A stretch of 35,360 nt of DNA from a virus: the IMG/VR virus record IMGVR_UViG_3300025671_009225, positions 1-35,360 of that record; one strand, 5' to 3'. The position numbers were made by a program, and so were the translations under genes. The notes beneath the pieces were generated by a model. The model did not search any database. It worked only from the letters and a program-made list of their open reading frames with translations, and had not been told where the DNA came from. Shown here one piece after another: positions 3,322-25,924 of this stretch (its first letter is position 1; the number at the start of each line of letters is the position of its first letter).

Positions 3322-4683
3322 ATGGAGATAATAGTTAACAATATACAACCAATAAATGAAGAACAAAAAAGGGTTATTAATGAAGTTAGGGATTTTATTA
3401 AAAATGGAGACCCTAATGAGTGGTTTCTTATAGAAGGTAAAGCGGGAACAGGTAAAACAACTATTATAACCAAAGCTATAGAACCTTATGTTGGTAAAAG
3501 ACGTGTTGAAATATCAGCTTTATCACACAAAGCAAAAAAAGTTTTAACCAATAAAATATACGAATCATATGGTTCAGAAACGATAGGGTTAAGTTCAAGA
3601 AGTGTTGCATCACTTTTGGGTATGACTTTTAATATAGAAACAGGTAAGTTTACAAAAATATACACAAAGAAAAAACCACCTATTAGATGGGATGATGTTA
3701 TTATTGTTGATGAAGCTTCTATGATTAATGAAGAAGCTTTAGAATTAATCATGAAACTAAAGAAACCCAAGGCAAAAGTTATTTTTATCGGTGATGTAGG
3801 ACAATTACCACCAATTAGGGAACAAGGTGATGAAAATGTGGGTAAAATTAGTCCTGTTTTTAATACAACAAATAAAATAACTTTATTAAATAGGGTTAGA
3901 CAAAGTAGTGATAGTGAAATATTACCATATTCTGATTACTACTGGGATAATTCTGTTAAAAATGAAGGTATAGATGAAGATCCAATACCTTTAAGTAAAA
4001 GAAAAACAAACCAACAAATTGTTTTTTCAACAGACATGGAAGGTGTTTTGATTGAGAACAAAAACTTATTTTTAGAATCCATAAAAACAAATAACACTGA
4101 TTTGGTTAAAGTTATTGTTTATAGGAACAACACAAAAAAAGCTATTAATTGGTATATTAGGAACCTTTTATTTGAAAAACCAAAAGAATATGAAGTTGGT
4201 GAAATGGTGATATTTAATGATAACTATTTTGATGGTAATGATATTATTATGGAAAACTCCACAGAATGTAGTATTGTTAAAATACAAGAAAAAACTTTTT
4301 ATAAAAAATTTAAAGGTTATGTTTTAACACTTACTGATGGTGAAAAAACTGAAGATGTTAAAGTAATATCAGAAGAAAGTGTTTTTGAGTGGAATAAACA
4401 TATATCTAATTTATTTACTGAAGCAAAAAAACAACCATTTGGTAGGTCTAGAAATAACGCATTAAAAAGAGCGTGGGATACTAAAAGAAAGTTTGCTGAT
4501 ATAGATTACGCATACACACTTACATCACATAAAGCACAAGGGTCAACTTATAAAAATGTTATTGTGGTAGAAGATGATATTTTGGAGGTTTCTATGATAG
4601 ATAATGTTGAAAAATCACAATCACTATATGTTGCAATAACTAGAGCTTCAGATAAAGTTTATATAGTATCAGAACTTAACTAA
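3322..4683 (+). CDS. dda: Dda-like SF1B DNA helicase
   Basis: A superfamily 1B 5'-to-3' helicase of the T4 Dda/RecD2 type. Motif I is GKAGTGKTT (39-47), motif II is DEAS (130-133), motif III is GDVGQLPP, motif V lies around TSHKAQGSTYKNV and motif VI is YVAITRASDKVYIV near the C-terminus. The length, 453 aa, is close to T4 Dda (439). Dda works in replication initiation, fork progress past bound proteins, and recombination. Its place between the gp47-like and gp46-like genes fits that role. Confidence 0.92.
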   Translation: MEIIVNNIQPINEEQKRVINEVRDFIKNGDPNEWFLIEGKAGTGKTTIITKAIEPYVGKRRVEISALSHKAKKVLTNKIYESYGSETIGLSSRSVASLLGMTFNIETGKFTKIYTKKKPPIRWDDVIIVDEASMINEEALELIMKLKKPKAKVIFIGDVGQLPPIREQGDENVGKISPVFNTTNKITLLNRVRQSSDSEILPYSDYYWDNSVKNEGIDEDPIPLSKRKTNQQIVFSTDMEGVLIENKNLFLESIKTNNTDLVKVIVYRNNTKKAINWYIRNLLFEKPKEYEVGEMVIFNDNYFDGNDIIMENSTECSIVKIQEKTFYKKFKGYVLTLTDGEKTEDVKVISEESVFEWNKHISNLFTEAKKQPFGRSRNNALKRAWDTKRKFADIDYAYTLTSHKAQGSTYKNVIVVEDDILEVSMIDNVEKSQSLYVAITRASDKVYIVSELN

Positions 4684-5553: not shown

Positions 5554-7929
5554 ATGGAAAAAACTTTAGTGAAAAAAATGGTAGACATACCTAGTAAGGC
5601 TAAAATTAGGGTTATTTGGGAAGATAATCCTGAAAATTATACACAAGAGAGATCTAAAAGAATTGCTAAATATATTATAGAAAAATACGGAAACCCTAAT
5701 GTACAAGTTATCTTTAAACCAAAAAAAGTTAATACGGAACAGGGTGAGGTTGAGATGACCGTTGCTGATAATGTAATGGACACTAATTACCAAAGAAAAT
5801 TATTTAAAGAATGGGTTAATTCTAATTCTGTTGATGTTGATTGGGAACGTTTGTTAAGATTAGACGATAAAGTAAACGAAAAATTATCACAACAAAGAGA
5901 AACAGATTATAGATATAGAAACTGGTATATTAAAGAATTAGAGTGGTCTAATTTCCTTTCTTATGGTGATGGTAATAAAATATCTTTTAAGGAATTAGAG
6001 GGTATAACAGTTATAACATCAAACCCACTTAATATGGGAGGAAAAACCACTTTGGCTTTAGATCTATTATTATTCCTTTTCTTTAATACAACAACAAAAG
6101 GTAATACAGCATCAAAAATGTTTAATCTTTTTAGGGATAAAGATGAGGTTATAGTAAAAGGAAAAGTAGCTATTGATGGTGTTGATTATATTATTGAACG
6201 TACTGTTACAAGAAAATTAAAAAGAAATGGTACTGATTATAACACACGAACAGACCTATCTTTTTATAGAATATTACATGATGATACAATAGAAAACTTA
6301 GAAGGTGAACAAAGACGTGAAACTGAAGAGTTTATTAAAAAATCTATTGGTTCAGTTGATGATTTTTTATTAACAATTATTGCTGACGCTGATAACCTAG
6401 AAAACATCATCCACACCAAACCAACAGAAAAAGGTAGAATATTATCTAGATTTATTGGTTTGGAGGTAATTGAAGATAAAGAAGTTATTGTTAAAGAAAT
6501 GAAATCAGCATGGGCAAAAGGATTAAAATCAGACCAATATAATATAACAGAATTAACTTCAGAAATAGAAGAATTAGAAAAAACAATAAAAGAAAAAGAA
6601 AACACAATTATTGAAAACGATATTGAGGTTAAAGCTTTAACTTCTAGTATAAAATCAGCAACAGAAAAAAAAGAAATATTAATATCTAAAAAAATAGATA
6701 TAGATGGTGAGGTAATTAATTTAAGACCAGAAGATATTGACCGAGAAGTTGAGACAATAATAGAAAAAGGTAAAAAGAAAAAAGAAGGATATGAAACCAT
6801 TAAAAAATCCTTTGATGAGATGGTTGAGCCAAATTATGATGAAGATCTACATAAAGAGTATGTTAAAGAAGAGCGACAATCCAATTTGGAAGTTGAAAAA
6901 GTAAAATCAAAATTAAAAGAAACAGAATCTAGAATTAAAAACTTAGAAGAGGGTGAATTTTGTTCTTTATGTAAACAACCTTTGGCTGATGTTGACCATA
7001 CTGACGAAATAAATGAAAACAAATCTTTATTAGAAGAATTAAATAATAATCTAGGTGAGTTAAAAACCAAGTTAGAAGAAATAAGTAATTTAGTTTTGGA
7101 ACAAGATAAAATAAAAGCATCTGTTTCTGAATACGATAGAACTTCTCTTATGGTAGATAAATTAGATTTGGACCTAGAAAAACTTAGAATTGAGAGAAAA
7201 GAAAAGTTAGACCTTAAAAAAAGATACGAAGATAATTTAGATAACATCCAAAAAAATAAAGATTTGGACAGCCAAATTTTAGGTTATAACGCTAAAATAG
7301 ATAATTTAGAATTAGATAAAACAAATAAAATTAAATTAGGTGAGAGGTTAGATAATGAAATAACCCAACATAAAACACAGATTGATAAAAACAACGAATA
7401 CATTAAAACCATTAAGGCTGAAGAAGAGATTAAACTTATTTTTGAGGTTTACCAAAGAATGGTTGGTAAAAATGGTATTATTAAAATGATTATGAGAAGT
7501 GTGATGCCTTTAATTAACTCTGAATTAGATAGATTATTAATAGATACAGCACCATTTAAATTGGAAGTAGATATTAATGATAAAAAAGAGGTTGAGTTTT
7601 TGGTTACAAAAGAAAGTGGTGAAGGTGAAGTAATTAAATACCCTGTTAATGAATGTAGTGGGTTTGAAAAAACAGTTTCATCATTAGCTTTAAGGTGTGT
7701 TATGTCTAAAGTAAGCTGTTTACCAAAACCAAATATTATTGTTTTCGATGAGATATTCGGTAAAGTGGCTAACGAGAACTTGGAATTGGTAGGAAACTTT
7801 TTTCAAAAATGTTCGGAGATGTTCCCAAACATATTTTTAATAACACACAACGAGATTGTTAAAGATTGGGCAACAAAAATTATAACTATCAACAAAAAAA
7901 ATAATGTTTCTTCTTTGTTACTTAATTAA
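5554..7929 (+). CDS. gp46/SbcC-like recombination ATPase with N-terminal extension
   Basis: A Rad50/SbcC/T4 gp46-type ATPase and the partner of the gp47-like nuclease. About 125 residues of unfamiliar sequence precede the ABC domain, which begins near IKELEWSNFLSYGDG. The Walker A is atypical (NPLNMGGKTT, K164). Two long coiled coils flank a zinc hook, C470-x2-C473 (CSLC). The signature motif reads ECSGFEKT in place of LSGGE, and Walker B is IIVFDEIFGKV (D732, E733). At 791 aa it is longer than T4 gp46 (560), partly through the extension and arms. A likely DNA-end tether and resection motor. Confidence 0.9.
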   Translation: MEKTLVKKMVDIPSKAKIRVIWEDNPENYTQERSKRIAKYIIEKYGNPNVQVIFKPKKVNTEQGEVEMTVADNVMDTNYQRKLFKEWVNSNSVDVDWERLLRLDDKVNEKLSQQRETDYRYRNWYIKELEWSNFLSYGDGNKISFKELEGITVITSNPLNMGGKTTLALDLLLFLFFNTTTKGNTASKMFNLFRDKDEVIVKGKVAIDGVDYIIERTVTRKLKRNGTDYNTRTDLSFYRILHDDTIENLEGEQRRETEEFIKKSIGSVDDFLLTIIADADNLENIIHTKPTEKGRILSRFIGLEVIEDKEVIVKEMKSAWAKGLKSDQYNITELTSEIEELEKTIKEKENTIIENDIEVKALTSSIKSATEKKEILISKKIDIDGEVINLRPEDIDREVETIIEKGKKKKEGYETIKKSFDEMVEPNYDEDLHKEYVKEERQSNLEVEKVKSKLKETESRIKNLEEGEFCSLCKQPLADVDHTDEINENKSLLEELNNNLGELKTKLEEISNLVLEQDKIKASVSEYDRTSLMVDKLDLDLEKLRIERKEKLDLKKRYEDNLDNIQKNKDLDSQILGYNAKIDNLELDKTNKIKLGERLDNEITQHKTQIDKNNEYIKTIKAEEEIKLIFEVYQRMVGKNGIIKMIMRSVMPLINSELDRLLIDTAPFKLEVDINDKKEVEFLVTKESGEGEVIKYPVNECSGFEKTVSSLALRCVMSKVSCLPKPNIIVFDEIFGKVANENLELVGNFFQKCSEMFPNIFLITHNEIVKDWATKIITINKKNNVSSLLLN

Positions 7930-21651: not shown

Positions 21652-22590
21652 ATGAAGGAATATTATGACATATTAGGTTTAAAAACCAATGCAACACAAG
21701 AAGAAATTAAAAAGGCGTATAGGAAGTTATCCAAACAACATCACCCAGATTTAAATCCCAACAATAAGGAGGCTGAAAACAAATTCAAAAAAATAGCTGA
21801 AGCATATGAGATTTTAACTGGTAAACAAAAACCTAAAAACCAAAACCCTTTTGGTGGTAACCCCTTTAATCAACAAGTATATAAACCAAATCCAATTAAA
21901 ATGCCAATCAGTTTAAGTTTGGAGGAAATATATAATGGTGTTGAAAAAACGATAAATTATACCATTAAAGAAAGTTGTGTTAAATGTGACGGTGATGGGG
22001 GGTTTGAACCAACAACTTGTAATCAATGTGGAGGTCATGGACATATCCAACAAGGACCATTTGCCTTTATGTGTAATAATTGTCATGGTAGTGGTAAATT
22101 ATTTAAAAGGGTTTGTTATACTTGTTCAGGAAGAGGTTTTGAACAAAAACAAACAAGTATTAATTTAAACATACCAAAAGGTACAACAGATGGTAGTTTA
22201 TATACTTACCCAGGTATTGGGGATAATATTAAAGGCCAACAAAGGGGAGATGTTTTATTTATCATTAAAGTTAAACAACACCCAATATATAAAATAGAAG
22301 GTTTAAATTTAAGGAAAAGTGTAGAAGTACCTGTTATAGATATTATTCTAGGTACAGAAAAAGAAATAGATACCTTAGGTGGTAAATTAAAAATAAAAAT
22401 ACCTAAATTAACCGATATGAATAAAGTTTTTAGGGTAAAAGGTAAAGGTATACAGGACAATTCAACAAGGTTAGTTGGTGACCTATATTTAGAATTAAAA
22501 CCAATACTACCAAAAGAGTTAAACGATAATCAAATACAAAAACTAACAGAACTAAAAGAATCGTTTAATTTGGTTAAAGATGCATATTAA
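21652..22590 (+). CDS. dnaJ: DnaJ-like co-chaperone
   Basis: J domain at 1-60 with HPD at 31-33, a short Gly/Asn/Phe linker (NPFGGNPFN), then four CxxCxGxG-type zinc repeats ([33 protein letters not shown]), and the C-terminal substrate domains. It is a full type I DnaJ, 312 aa, with a shortened linker. It would recruit host DnaK for folding or for remodelling a phage complex. Complete DnaJ is unusual in phages. FKBP and TROVE-related genes follow. Confidence 0.93.
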
Positions 22591-22610
22591 TAAAAAAACT
22601 CATAATTAAC

Positions 22611-22641
22611 TTGACATATTAAATAAAGTACACTATTATTG
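22611..22641 (+). promoter_or_regulatory. promoter of the FKBP gene
   Basis: TTGACA at 22611, 20-nt spacer, TATTATTG at 22634-22641 (one mismatch). The start codon is 30 nt further on. Confidence 0.7.
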
Positions 22642-22671
22642 TTTGTATAATAATTAAAAAAAACACATAAA

Positions 22672-23085
22672 ATGATTGAAAAAGGAAGTAAAGTAAAAGT
22701 TCACTACACAGGTAAATTAGAAGATAACAATGTATTTGATACATCTGTTAATAAAGAACCTTTAGAGTTTACTGTTGGCGAAGGTATGTTAATCCCAGGT
22801 TTTGAAAATGGGGTTTTAGGTATGAAAACTGGTGATAAAAAAACTATTGAATTATCTGTTGGAGAAGCTTATGGTGAAAGAAGAGATGATTTAATTAACG
22901 AAATCCCTAAAAATAACTTACCTGAAAACGTTGAGGTAGGACAAATGTTACAGGCTGAAACTGAACAAGGACCAATTACAGTTGTTGTAACAGATATTAA
23001 CGAGGAAACAGCTAAAATTGATGCTAACCACCCTTTAGCTGGTAGAAAATTATTTTTCGACTTAGAAATTGTTGAGGTTGCCTAA
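22672..23085 (+). CDS. SlyD-like FKBP peptidyl-prolyl isomerase
   Basis: FKBP-type PPIase of the SlyD/FkpB group: VKVHYTGKLEDNNVFDTS, LIPGFENGVLGMKTGDKK, then an insert-in-flap domain and NHPLAGRKLFFDLEIVEV at the C-terminus. It lacks the His-rich tail of E. coli SlyD. It catalyses prolyl isomerisation and assists folding. It has its own promoter and terminator, so it is expressed alone. With DnaJ next to it, the pair suggests phage-controlled protein folding. Confidence 0.93.
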   Translation: MIEKGSKVKVHYTGKLEDNNVFDTSVNKEPLEFTVGEGMLIPGFENGVLGMKTGDKKTIELSVGEAYGERRDDLINEIPKNNLPENVEVGQMLQAETEQGPITVVVTDINEETAKIDANHPLAGRKLFFDLEIVEVA

Positions 23086-23148: not shown

Positions 23149-23179
23149 TTGATTAAATAAAATAAACTATCTATATTTG
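23149..23179 (+). promoter_or_regulatory. promoter of the TROVE-related gene
   Basis: TTG at 23149, 20-nt spacer, perfect TATATTTG at 23172-23179, and a 25-nt gap to the ATG. Confidence 0.82.
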
Positions 23180-23204
23180 TCTAACAATTAAAAAACACTA
23201 TATT

Positions 23205-24623
23205 ATGTCTAACTTATTAGAATCTTTACAAATGGAAAACACAAGAACATATAACGGAATGGTAACAAATTCATCATCACTAAATGAATGTGTTAATTTG
23301 TTCTTTTCTATTGGGGCAATGCGTGGTTCTAAAAAACATAAGGTACTAAACTTATTTGTTAAGGCTTATAGTGAGGATACATTAACAGCAACAAAAATCC
23401 TTTTTTGGGTTAGAGATATTAGAGGTGGTGCTGGTGAAAGACAAATATTTAAGGATATTATTAAACATTTAGGTAGTGAAAACCCTGATTTGGTTAGAAA
23501 AAACCTAACATTAATTCCTGAGTTTGGTAGATGGGACGATTTGTTTTCATTAATGGGAACACCTGTTGAATCAGATGTTATTGAGTTATTAAAAACATCT
23601 TTATTTGATGGTCATGTTAATTCGTTGGTAGCAAAATGGTTGCCAAGAAAAGGTGTTGTTTTCAACAAATTAACGAAATCAATGAAATTGAACGCAAAAG
23701 GATTACGTCAGTTATTGGTTAAATTGTCTAATAGTGTTGAACAAAAGATGTGTTCCAATCAATGGGATAAAATCGATTATTCAAAGGTACCATCGTTAGC
23801 CATATCAAGATATAATCACGCTTTCAGTACGAATGATGGTGATAGATATTATGATTATTTGGAATCCCTAAAAAAGGGTGAAACAAAGGTTAATGTTGGA
23901 GCAATCTACCCTTACGATGTTATTAAAACATTAAAATCTGATGGTGGTAGTTTGGCAAACGAATTATGGACAAACTTACCAAACTTTATGGAAGGGTCAA
24001 CTGAATTAATTTTACCTTTGGTGGATGTATCAGGTTCTATGGGTTGTTCGTTTGGTGGAAACCCTAACTTAACTTGTATGGATGTGGCAATATCTTTGGG
24101 TATGTATATATCTGAAAGAAATGAGGGTGATTTCAAGGATGCTTTCATGACATTCAGTTCAAACCCACAAATCCAAGTCCTAAAAGGTGGTTTGGAACAA
24201 AGGTTTAGACAATTACGTTCAGCTGATTGGGGTATGTCCACAGATTTGGAGTTAGCGTTTAAGACCTTATTAAACCAAGCTACAAAGTTTAATGTTCCTC
24301 AGGAGGGGATGCCAACAAAGATATTAATCTTATCGGATATGGAATTTAATCATGGTGTTGATGATGTTGATACAACAGCATTAAAAATGATTGATGATAT
24401 GTATTCTGAAGCTGGTTATGAACGACCTGGGATTATTTTCTGGAATTTACACGCAAGTGGTTCTAACTTCCCTGTTAGATTTGATGAAAATGGGGTGGCA
24501 ATGATTTCCGGGTTTTCGCCATCTATATTAAAATCGGTTTTATCGAACCCTGATTCTTTAACACCATTTAACATTATGATGGAAACTATTAGTAACGAAA
24601 GATATTCTAAAATAACTATTTAA
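23205..24623 (+). CDS. TROVE-related DUF2828 protein with vWA domain
   Basis: The N-terminal two thirds are helical-repeat-like (KILFWVRDIRGGAGERQIFK, IPEFGRWDDLF, VAKWLPRKG, LRQLLVKLSNSVEQKMCSNQ, YSKVPSLAISRYNHAF), the pattern of DUF2828, a relative of the TROVE module of Ro60. The C-terminal third is a von Willebrand A domain with an intact metal site: D274-V-S276-G-S278, T346 and D378. Ro60-type proteins bind misfolded RNAs and small Y RNAs. 472 aa. It starts just after its own promoter and is followed, 4 bases past its stop, by the promoter of a structured RNA. The family call is confident; the RNA-binding role is inference. Confidence 0.85.
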   Translation: MSNLLESLQMENTRTYNGMVTNSSSLNECVNLFFSIGAMRGSKKHKVLNLFVKAYSEDTLTATKILFWVRDIRGGAGERQIFKDIIKHLGSENPDLVRKNLTLIPEFGRWDDLFSLMGTPVESDVIELLKTSLFDGHVNSLVAKWLPRKGVVFNKLTKSMKLNAKGLRQLLVKLSNSVEQKMCSNQWDKIDYSKVPSLAISRYNHAFSTNDGDRYYDYLESLKKGETKVNVGAIYPYDVIKTLKSDGGSLANELWTNLPNFMEGSTELILPLVDVSGSMGCSFGGNPNLTCMDVAISLGMYISERNEGDFKDAFMTFSSNPQIQVLKGGLEQRFRQLRSADWGMSTDLELAFKTLLNQATKFNVPQEGMPTKILILSDMEFNHGVDDVDTTALKMIDDMYSEAGYERPGIIFWNLHASGSNFPVRFDENGVAMISGFSPSILKSVLSNPDSLTPFNIMMETISNERYSKITI

Positions 24624-24627
24624 TATC

Positions 24628-24658
24628 TTGACTTATTAAAAAATCGTTAGTATATTTG
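24628..24658 (+). promoter_or_regulatory. promoter of the structured RNA
   Basis: TTG at 24628, 20-nt spacer, perfect TATATTTG at 24651-24658. It lies immediately after the stop of the TROVE-related gene and closely resembles the FKBP promoter (TTGACTTATTA against TTGACATATTA). Confidence 0.82.
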
Positions 24659-24663
24659 TTGTA

Positions 24664-25031
24664 TAAACTATTAAAAAAAAAATTAGATAACTTAAACTTA
24701 TAGGTGATGAAAGATACTCGGATTAAGTTATTTGTTCTTTGAAAATATTGTGATATTGAGGGGTAATTTCGGCAAACTTTTTATAAAAAATCAATTAGTT
24801 TAAGATCGAAGGGCTAGAGTAACCCATGTATTTCATAAGGGTGTAAACGTGAAAACGAGGGACCACTCAAGGTACATAAAGGACTCAAACGACCCTGTTA
24901 TCACAAACTTATTAAGGATAATGAAGAATGGATTCAGCAAATTTATTCAAAAACTTGTGGTGTTTAAAAAAACCATTCTGTTATCCTAATATATTAAAAG
25001 GGGGTTACTGAAAAGTTTTCCCCTTTTTTTA
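24664..25031 (+). ncRNA. structured non-coding RNA, about 368 nt
   Basis: The transcript runs from a clear promoter to a strong terminator with no gene inside; the longest frame is 22 codons. It folds into separate parts. Hairpin 1 pairs ATAACTTAA (24687-24695) with TTAAGTTAT (24723-24731). A long-range stem pairs TTGTGATA (24748-24755) with TATCACAA (24899-24906), continued by AGGG (24759-24762) with CCCT (24893-24896). Inside are ACCCATG with CAT-AA-GGGT and a small CGT-GAAA-ACG hairpin. Hairpin 3 pairs AGGATAA and AGAATGG (24915-24931) with CCATTCT and TTATCCT (24973-24987). It does not look like tmRNA or RNase P RNA. A partner of the TROVE-related protein is the leading idea. Confidence 0.8.
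24996..25031 (+). terminator. Rho-independent terminator of the structured RNA
   Basis: AAAAGGGGG pairs with CCCCCTTTT (9 bp perfect). Inside the loop, ACT-GAAA-AGT makes a second small stem with a GAAA tetraloop. A run of T's follows. Confidence 0.93.
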
Positions 25032-25132: not shown

Positions 25133-25924
25133 ATGAAAAAAGTAGTTTTATTTTTAAGTTTGATTGTATTAACAATCTCAATGAGTTCGTGTTCAAGTGT
25201 CGAACCAAATTATGAAGGTGTCCTAATGGAGAATTATGGACGAAATGGAGAATCTGATTTTAAATCAGTAAAAGGACGTCAATGGACAATCTTCCCTGGT
25301 GTTAAATTGTATCAAGTCCCAATGTTTGAAACAGGAGGTGACCCTGATATGATTACTATTAACGCAAAAGATGCTGGACAATTCACTATCGACCCATCTT
25401 ATCAATATTCTCCAATGAGAGGTAAAGGTGTTGATATCGTGTTTAATTATAAACATTTAGGTGTAAATGAACCTGAGGTTATGTTTGAACAACTAGAACA
25501 GAGTATCTTAAATAAATTAGTGGTTAATGCATATCGTGAAGAAGCAAGAAATTACACAACAGATTCATTAATGAATAATCTAAATAACTATGAAAAGGTT
25601 GTTGAATCTAAATTAAAGAAAGATTTTGAAGAAAAATTCATGAATCTACAAAATTTAACATCAGGTCTTAAACCACCAGCATCAATGGCAAAAGCAATCG
25701 AAGATAGAAACAATGCTATCCAAAAGGCTAATCAAATTGAGAATGAGGTTAAGGTGGCTAAAATGGAGTTAGAAAAAGCTAGAATCGAACAACAAACCAA
25801 TGAAATCAAATCTAGAGGTTTAACAAAAGAAATCTTAGCTGAGAAATGGATTAACGCTGTTAGATATAGTAGTAATAGAGTAGTAATTACAGATGGCAAA
25901 ACACCTGTCATATTAAATCAATAA
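25133..25924 (+). CDS. SPFH/prohibitin-like lipoprotein
   Basis: A signal peptide with a lipoprotein-type Cys (LTISMSSC, C20), then an SPFH/band-7-like domain (GRQWTIFPGVKLYQVPMFET, TINAKDAGQFTIDPSYQY) and a helical C-terminal arm rich in Glu/Lys (NQIENEVKVAKMELEKARIE). SPFH proteins form large membrane rings. Versions of this gene occur in Bacteroidota phages, perhaps as a cap on the periplasmic side that blocks other phages or stabilises lysis timing; that part is speculation. 263 aa. Confidence 0.85.
   Translation: MKKVVLFLSLIVLTISMSSCSSVEPNYEGVLMENYGRNGESDFKSVKGRQWTIFPGVKLYQVPMFETGGDPDMITINAKDAGQFTIDPSYQYSPMRGKGVDIVFNYKHLGVNEPEVMFEQLEQSILNKLVVNAYREEARNYTTDSLMNNLNNYEKVVESKLKKDFEEKFMNLQNLTSGLKPPASMAKAIEDRNNAIQKANQIENEVKVAKMELEKARIEQQTNEIKSRGLTKEILAEKWINAVRYSSNRVVITDGKTPVILNQ

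What the first reader, a model, noticed from the sequence alone, without database searches (positions are those of the whole stretch)
23149..25031. TROVE-related protein paired with a dedicated structured RNA: a possible phage Ro60-like RNP
A DUF2828/TROVE-related protein with an intact MIDAS vWA domain has, 4 bases past its stop, a perfect promoter for a ~368-nt non-coding transcript that ends in a strong terminator. Bacterial Ro60 homologues are typically encoded beside their Y RNAs. Protein and RNA have separate promoters, so the RNA is not just a 3' UTR. No phage DUF2828 RNA partner is known to me.
Basis: partly seen in the sequence, partly recalled or inferred. Interest (0 to 1): 0.9.

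Follow-up and report, generated by a model that had tools for sequence, protein, structure and literature searches.

The report
Phage Ro60-like protein with Y-like RNAs
Next to a virus-encoded relative of the human lupus autoantigen Ro60 lies an RNA gene holding small stem-loop RNAs of a kind that recurs beside the same protein in unrelated bacterial viruses, often carries a copy of a tRNA anticodon arm, and shares its signature with an orphan RNA class of social amoebae.

Summary
The protein (23205-24623) is a Ro60-fold protein of the DUF2828/DUF7788 family (phrog_850). Its predicted structure matches a phage Ro60 (Z 19.8) and animal Ro60 (Z about 17.5). The transcript-like region downstream (about 24664-25031) holds two elements. 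The better defined one, 24923-24982, has a 6-7 bp end stem, then NUNCNGCAA, variable cargo, the second stem strand and YG. A covariance model built without the window finds it at E=3.4e-10. Within 1.5 kb of 71 Ro-like genes there were 49 sense copies, 0 antisense and 0.05 expected. In 21 of 25 large-phage records the model hits within 250 nt upstream of the gene, same strand. The end stem covaries strongly. In phage tRNA arrays, 62 of 102 distinct cargoes are anticodon-arm mimics (0.3 expected); other copies hold permuted tRNAs as in bacterial YrlA. The Rfam model for Dictyostelium Class I RNA, said to exist nowhere else, picks the same phage elements. New are the mini Y-like RNAs with anticodon arms, the DUF2828 pairing across phages and the Class I link. 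Function (decoy or RNA-surveillance adapter) is inferred; expression and binding were not tested.

The parts
23149..23179 (+). promoter-like sequence TTG-N20-TATATTTG before the protein gene
   Evidence: pattern scan; consensus match only
23205..24623 (+). Ro60-fold protein, DUF2828 + DUF7788 (vWA), phrog_850, 472 aa, intact MIDAS
24628..24658 (+). promoter-like sequence TTG-N20-TATATTTG for the RNA
   Evidence: not tested
24684..24735 (+). 5' hairpin (GATAACTTAA / TTAAGTTATT arms) holding AGGTGATGAAAGATACTCGG, which recurs after the stop codon in several 64-67% identical relatives
24750..24904 (+). element 1: outer stem GTGATA/TATCAC, inner stem GGGGT/ACCC(U), core AATTTCGGCAA, 3' CTG; homologous to relatives' GTGGTATTAAGGAATAATTGCAGCAA...CGATTCCGTTACCAC
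   Evidence: alignment A5, (pairs 13-152 and 14-151 compensated in the window)
24923..24982 (+). element 2, the Y-like / Class-I-like small RNA element: GAA-GAATGG-ATTCAGCAA-cargo-CCATTC-TGTT
   Evidence: covariance model built without the window: 53.4 bits, E 3.4e-10; closing stem covaries
24996..25031 (+). terminator-like hairpin AAAAGGGG...CCCCTTTTTTT
   Evidence: fold, sequence; not in the list

Best explanation
The locus encodes a two-part RNP. Part one is a ring-shaped Ro60-like protein. Part two is one or more small non-coding RNAs of a Y-like class, built from a constant end and a variable cargo. The constant end is a 6-7 bp stem joining both ends, the core NUNCNGCAA and a 3' YG, and is most likely what the protein holds. 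The cargo often mimics tRNA parts: single anticodon arms or circularly permuted tRNAs; in the window it is a short A-rich linker. Most likely use: the phage makes RNPs that present tRNA-like or anticodon-loop surfaces during infection. These would either act as decoys for host anticodon nucleases or tether the Ro-like ring to a nuclease or repair enzyme for damaged tRNA, as YrlA tethers Rsr to PNPase. Shown here: Ro60 fold (predicted model), genomic pairing, covarying stem, conserved core, anticodon-arm cargo, position in tRNA arrays. Inferred: transcription, binding of the constant end by the protein, and the decoy or tether role.
For: Fold: AF2 pLDDT 80; Foldseek 9kop 2.3e-10, Ro60 2i91 2.2e-7, Rsr 2nvo 3e-8; VIA-align Z 19.8 (9kop) and 17.5 (1yvp) against under 10 for unrelated rows. 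Pairing: strict scan 49 sense hits in 26 of 71 loci, 0 antisense, 0.05 expected; relaxed 68 hits in 39 loci, 0 antisense, 0.9 expected. Model R1 hits within 250 nt upstream, same strand, of the phrog_850 gene in 21 of 25 records and within 600 nt in 23 (genes; hits). Also beside the gene in Aeromonas APT65, Campylobacter F367, Felix-like Alf5, Listeria LP-125, Fusobacterium, Enterococcus and Staphylococcus phages and in Chloroflexi, Endomicrobium, Spirochaetia and Erysipelotrichaceae contigs. Structure: closing stem 99.5% paired, 68 doubly changed cells, slid controls 33-43%. tRNA mimicry: 62 of 102 cargoes with 5-bp stem and YU...R 7-nt loop against 0.28 shuffled, loops often equal to those of the phage's own tRNAs; elements sit between tRNA genes. 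A bacterial rsr-yrl-rtcB operon has GAAGGAAC-TACAGCCA, the same layout. Decoy precedent: the YrlA tRNA-like domain was proposed as a competitive inhibitor of an anticodon nuclease (PMC7790460).
Against: The window copy has only 33 nt of cargo; no canonical anticodon loop was found in it. Many relatives have no element by the strict pattern. The very abundant Listeria CKA15 ncRNAs seem to lie about 1 kb away from the elements of the related LP-125 (estimated position), so they are not direct expression evidence. Pfam does not call a TROVE domain. No RNA-seq, pull-down or phenotype for the window phage.
Confidence: 0.72

Rival explanations
1. The element is mainly a cis-acting leader or trailer through which the Ro-like protein controls its own mRNA (autoregulation), not a free RNA partner.
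For: In 21 of 25 records one copy lies within 250 nt upstream of the gene, where a leader would be.
Against: Further copies lie in tRNA arrays far from the gene, between tRNA genes. In the window the RNA is downstream and has its own promoter-like sequence. Cargo is often tRNA-like, which a leader would not need.
Confidence: 0.15
2. The small elements in tRNA arrays are working minimal tRNAs (no D or T arm) that decode in translation; the Ro-like protein is a chaperone for them.
For: 7-bp end stem with fixed U72-like and G73-like positions, canonical anticodon loops, position between tRNA genes.
Against: The same end is shared by copies with no anticodon arm or with whole permuted tRNAs; the end is the same whatever the anticodon; the same phages often carry full tRNAs with the same anticodons; bacterial EF-Tu and ribosomes are generally held to need T and D arms (general knowledge).
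Confidence: 0.04
3. The association reflects a mobile RNA or repeat that happens to settle near tRNA genes and the Ro-like gene; the 368-nt region has no joint function with the protein.
For: Copy number and cargo vary; cargo looks exchanged.
Against: 0 antisense copies near the gene against 49-68 sense; found with phages of Gram-positive and Gram-negative hosts and in Chloroflexi contigs; the stem is kept by compensatory change.
Confidence: 0.04

Closest known systems
Bacterial Y RNA YrlA with Rsr (Ro60) and PNPase (RYPER); rsr-yrlBA-rtcBA operons
   Same: Ro60-fold ring protein; RNA gene beside it; end stem followed by UACAGC (L310: GAAGGAAC-TACAGCCA); some phage and Clostridia copies carry the tRNA-like domain
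   Different: Window copy and most phage copies lack the D/T-arm domain; many carry only an anticodon arm; protein belongs to DUF2828/DUF7788 by profile, not Pfam TROVE; Rfam YrlA not reached in the window
Dictyostelium Class I RNA (RF01414)
   Same: AAG start, 6-bp covarying end stem, motif with C6, C9, A10, A11, CUGU end, about 60 nt, variable middle (PMC7919456); the Rfam model's best hits in several phage genomes are these elements
   Different: Eukaryotic host and promoter element; known partner is an RRM protein, a Ro-like partner not tested; scores stay below Rfam's gathering cut-off (28.4 of 41.5 bits at best)
Phage Ro60 of Thermus phage phiLo (PDB 9l5y, 9kop)
   Same: Best structural match to the window protein
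   Different: 17-19% identity in the Foldseek alignments; annotated as TROVE; its RNA context was not examined here
Putative Y RNAs of Listeria phage CKA15 (PMC12282133) and mycobacteriophages (Chen 2014, as cited there)
   Same: Proposed Ro/Y pairing in phages
   Different: Listeria RNAs were proposed from expression and position only; no shared motif, cargo classes or Class I link appear in the passages of that paper read here

Membership tests
Ro60 / TROVE proteins | HEAT-like ring plus vWA domain fold | tested here: met
   AF2 model against PDB: 9kop Z 19.8, 1yvp Z 17.5, 2nvo Z 13.1, next unrelated rows under 10
Ro60 / TROVE proteins | MIDAS DxSxS with intact residues | tested here: met
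   D274, S276, G277, S278 invariant in 31 sequences
Ro60 / TROVE proteins | match to the TROVE sequence profile (Pfam) | tested here: not met
   Only DUF7788 and DUF2828 above cut-off; weak PDB profile match 0.0055 to a TROVE protein. I therefore call it a Ro60-fold protein of the DUF2828 family
Ro60 / TROVE proteins | binds Y RNA on the ring's outer surface | not testable with these tools
   needs pull-down or structure
YrlA (RF02553) | end stem with conserved Ro-binding sequence | tested here: met
   stem + NUNCNGCAA in window element 2, against stem + UACAGC in a bacterial rsr-rtcB operon; that this sequence is the Ro-binding site is inferred
YrlA (RF02553) | tRNA-like domain (D, T and acceptor arms) | tested here: not met
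   Window element 2 has 33 nt cargo without such arms; no Rfam hit in the window. Present in some relatives (L217, L210, L206, L288). So the window RNA is not filed as a YrlA
Dictyostelium Class I RNA | 6-bp end stem, structure kept, sequence variable | tested here: met
Dictyostelium Class I RNA | 11-nt motif with T3, C6, C9, A10, A11 | tested here: inconclusive
   Window GGATTCAGCAA keeps four of five (T3 is A); UUACAGCAA copies such as L178:6571 keep all five
Dictyostelium Class I RNA | Rfam gathering score 41.5 | tested here: not met
   16.8 bits in the window, 28.4 at best in phages

The most novel reading that the evidence does not exclude
Phage mini-RNAs, bacterial YrlA and Dictyostelium Class I RNAs form one RNA class defined by a constant end held by Ro60-like (including DUF2828) proteins. 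Phages use it as a display scaffold that presents anticodon arms as decoys against host anticodon nucleases, and the partner of Class I RNAs in Dictyostelium is a DUF2828 Ro-like protein.
Probability: 0.3. Interest if true: 0.95.

Novelty: new variant of a known kind. Interest (0 to 1): 0.82.

Why it matters
It gives a testable partner to a protein family found in 681 of 50,697 phage records and annotated only as DUF2828, 'Ro-like' or 'RNA-binding'. It defines the RNA signature by which that partner can be found. It exposes a class of small RNAs hidden between phage tRNA genes that carry anticodon arms, which bears on how phages survive tRNA-cutting defences. And it offers a first relative outside Dictyostelia for Class I RNAs, reported as unique to them (PMC7919456), so that their protein partner and origin can be tested directly.

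Tried and rejected
Rfam at gathering level found nothing in the window; ARAGORN found no tRNA or tmRNA there, so group I intron, tmRNA and plain tRNA readings were dropped. Folding energy alone was not convincing. The idea that the abundant Listeria CKA15 RNAs are the elements was dropped: the elements of LP-125 lie at 3663-3810 of L209, directly before the gene, while the transcribed region appears to lie about 1 kb further upstream (position estimated from a related record). A His anticodon reading of the window cargo (AAAC-TTGTGGT-GTTT) was not kept: the loop is one base off both His loops seen most often with TTGTG (TTGTGGA, TTGTGAT). Papers on YrlA (Chen 2014; Sim and Wolin 2018; Wang 2018) and the Class I pull-down paper (Avesson 2011) are not held, so how far the Ro-binding sequence of YrlA is already described as such could not be checked. 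The hit variant GGTTCTTTTCAGCAA...AGGGTCTG (L032, L095, L101) was left out of the models as doubtful.

Full report
OBSERVATION. The window is a 35,360-base virus record of IMG/VR. At 23205-24623 there is a 472-aa ORF matching DUF7788 and DUF2828 and phrog_850, 'RNA-binding protein'. Its MIDAS residues are invariant in 31 relatives. Between its stop and the next ORF (25133) there is no ORF of 50 aa or more on the + strand. A promoter-like sequence begins 4 bases after the stop. It fits TTG-N20-TATATTTG, which also precedes the protein gene and other genes of the window; as a sigma-70 match it is 10 of 12, and such matches are about as frequent in shuffles. A hairpin with a T tract ends the region near 25031. 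The fold energy of the whole RNA is not remarkable, so structure had to be judged from relatives.

THE RNA IN CLOSE RELATIVES. Eighty related protein loci were fetched. Those 64-67% identical to the window protein carry a conserved RNA right after the stop codon. It is homologous to the window RNA: the 5' AGGTGATGAAAGATACTCGG hairpin in several of them, then element 1. Its outer stem and inner stem (GGAAT/ATTCC, in the window GGGGT/ACCC) are kept by compensatory change. Then follows element 2 (GAATGGTTTCTGCAA...CCATTCCG), which in these relatives encloses 235-262 nt and in the window only 33 nt. More distant relatives (L004, L143) have copies of element 2 with different but paired stems.

THE ELEMENT IS WIDESPREAD. 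About one hundred distinct copies have perfect 6-bp stems. The general form is A/G, 6-bp arm, NUNCNGCAA, cargo, 6-bp arm, Y, G. On 32 diverse copies the closing stem is 99.5% paired with 68 doubly changed cells, against 33-43% paired when slid. A covariance model made from these, without the window, finds window 24923-24982 at 53.4 bits, E 3.4e-10; the next window hit has E 2. Relatives of the window element were in the training set, so this is not a fully independent test.

PAIRING WITH THE PROTEIN. Four tests. (a) Within 1,500 nt of 71 phrog_850 genes: 49 strict hits on the gene's strand in 26 loci, none antisense, 0.05 expected from dinucleotide shuffles; relaxed, 68 hits in 39 loci, none antisense, 0.9 expected. 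The loci are partly related to each other, so hits are not all independent. (b) Of 35 records reached by the RNA pattern, 25 encode phrog_850; of 22 element-bearing records of 49 kb or more, 19 do; two large records that matched the pattern by chance (G022, G023) do not. (c) In the 25 records that encode it, I compared gene positions with model hits: 21 have a hit within 250 nt upstream on the same strand, 23 within 600 nt; the exceptions are G009 and G030. (d) In GenBank phages of unrelated lineages the element lies beside or near the gene: Aeromonas APT65 (five copies), Campylobacter F367, Felix-like Alf5 (four in the tRNA cluster), Fusobacterium FNU3, mycobacteriophage Faith1, Cronobacter S13, Enterococcus H1, a Staphylococcus phage (three), Listeria LP-125, with KVP40 and Ahp1 copies next to tRNA genes. 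Contigs assigned to Endomicrobium, Roseiflexaceae, Spirochaetia and Erysipelotrichaceae show the same; some may be viral contigs.

CARGO. In tRNA arrays of large phages the elements sit between ordinary tRNA genes and are missed by ARAGORN and by Rfam at gathering level in the rows shown. Of 102 distinct cargoes, 62 contain a 5-bp stem with a 7-nt loop that obeys the anticodon-loop rule, against 0.28 in shuffles. Anticodons: UUU 27, UCU 13, UGU 6, and others. Loops often equal those of the phage's own tRNA with that anticodon, while the stems are different and AU-rich. Other copies (L210, L217, L206:6470, by eye also L143) hold a circularly permuted tRNA, the layout of YrlA. In Lachnospiraceae the reverse arrangement occurs: tRNA-shaped RNAs directly before the gene in which the anticodon arm is replaced by a hairpin followed by UUGCAGCAA or UUACAGCAA (scan 61 sense against 13 antisense over whole loci). 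The window cargo shows none of these clearly.

WHAT IT IS. The AF2 model (pLDDT 80) matches the Ro60 of Thermus phage phiLo, animal Ro60 and Deinococcus Rsr, well above unrelated folds. A bacterial rsr-yrl-rtcB operon, found with Rfam YrlA, has Y RNAs with GAAGGAAC-TACAGCCA...GTTCCTTC. So the phage element looks like the Ro-binding end of a Y RNA with exchangeable cargo. This is strong as comparative evidence; binding itself is untested.

CLASS I RNA. Dictyostelium Class I RNAs have an AAG start, a 6-bp covarying end stem, an 11-nt motif CCUUACAGCAA with five near-invariant positions, a CUGU end, about 60 nt and a variable middle; the authors found none elsewhere (PMC7919456). Rfam's model of that class matches window element 2 end to end on the + strand, at a chance-level E of 2.2. 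In whole phage genomes its top hits are the elements: APT65 1.1e-4, Ahp1 4e-4, KVP40 5.9e-4, FNU3 1e-3. Scores stay below the gathering cut-off, and the window motif keeps four of five invariant bases, so it is not filed as a member. Whether this is common descent, transfer or convergence on one protein surface is open.

MECHANISM. In bacteria YrlA tethers Rsr to PNPase (review PMC8394870), and its tRNA-like domain was suggested as a competitive inhibitor of an anticodon nuclease (PMC7790460). Phages face anticodon nucleases (PMC7824862). A stable RNP displaying anticodon loops fits a decoy, a tether to tRNA repair, or both. The window RNA itself, with larger element 1 and short element 2, may be a scaffold variant. 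I rate identity as a Ro60-like RNP at about 0.85 and the decoy or tether role at about 0.45.

NOVELTY. Ro/Y pairing in phages had been proposed (PMC12282133, citing Chen 2014). The motif-defined class, its anticodon-arm cargo, its tight link to DUF2828 genes and the Class I resemblance were not found in the papers I could search; key YrlA papers were not readable here, so part of this may be described there.

Noticed in passing
L288:3546-3888 and other Lachnospiraceae loci (L252, L253, L261, L270, L278, L293): Up to three or four tRNA-shaped RNAs directly before the DUF2828 gene whose anticodon arm is replaced by a Ro-type hairpin (e.g. GGAGCTTTGTCAAAAGCTTTTGCAGCAA): an unpermuted counterpart of YrlA.
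   Followed up: partly
L036, L047, L049, L086, L109 elements: A recurrent cargo GCTAACTTTTGGATGTCTAGCGAC without an anticodon loop, in otherwise typical elements of tRNA arrays; role unexplained.
   Followed up: no
L209:2489-2980 (Listeria phage LP-125): A gene-free stretch that seems to correspond to the region giving up to 67% of phage transcripts in CKA15 (PMC12282133); it lacks the element, which lies at 3663-3810. A second, different ncRNA near the Ro-like gene.
   Followed up: partly
L047:5784-5859: ARAGORN calls a tRNA with anticodon CUA (labelled Pyl) in a large phage tRNA array: possible amber suppressor.
   Followed up: no
L203:966-1079 and 3715-3827; L217:5856-5976 and 5986-6098: Over-long tRNA matches (113-121 nt) near the Ro-like gene, probably tRNA-shaped Y-like RNAs; annotated in S13 as tRNA-Ser and tRNA-OTHER.
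   Followed up: partly
window 21652-23085 and 25133-25924: DnaJ-like, FKBP-type isomerase and Band-7 lipoprotein genes flank the locus; several genes and the RNA have separate TATATTTG promoter-like sequences.
   Followed up: no
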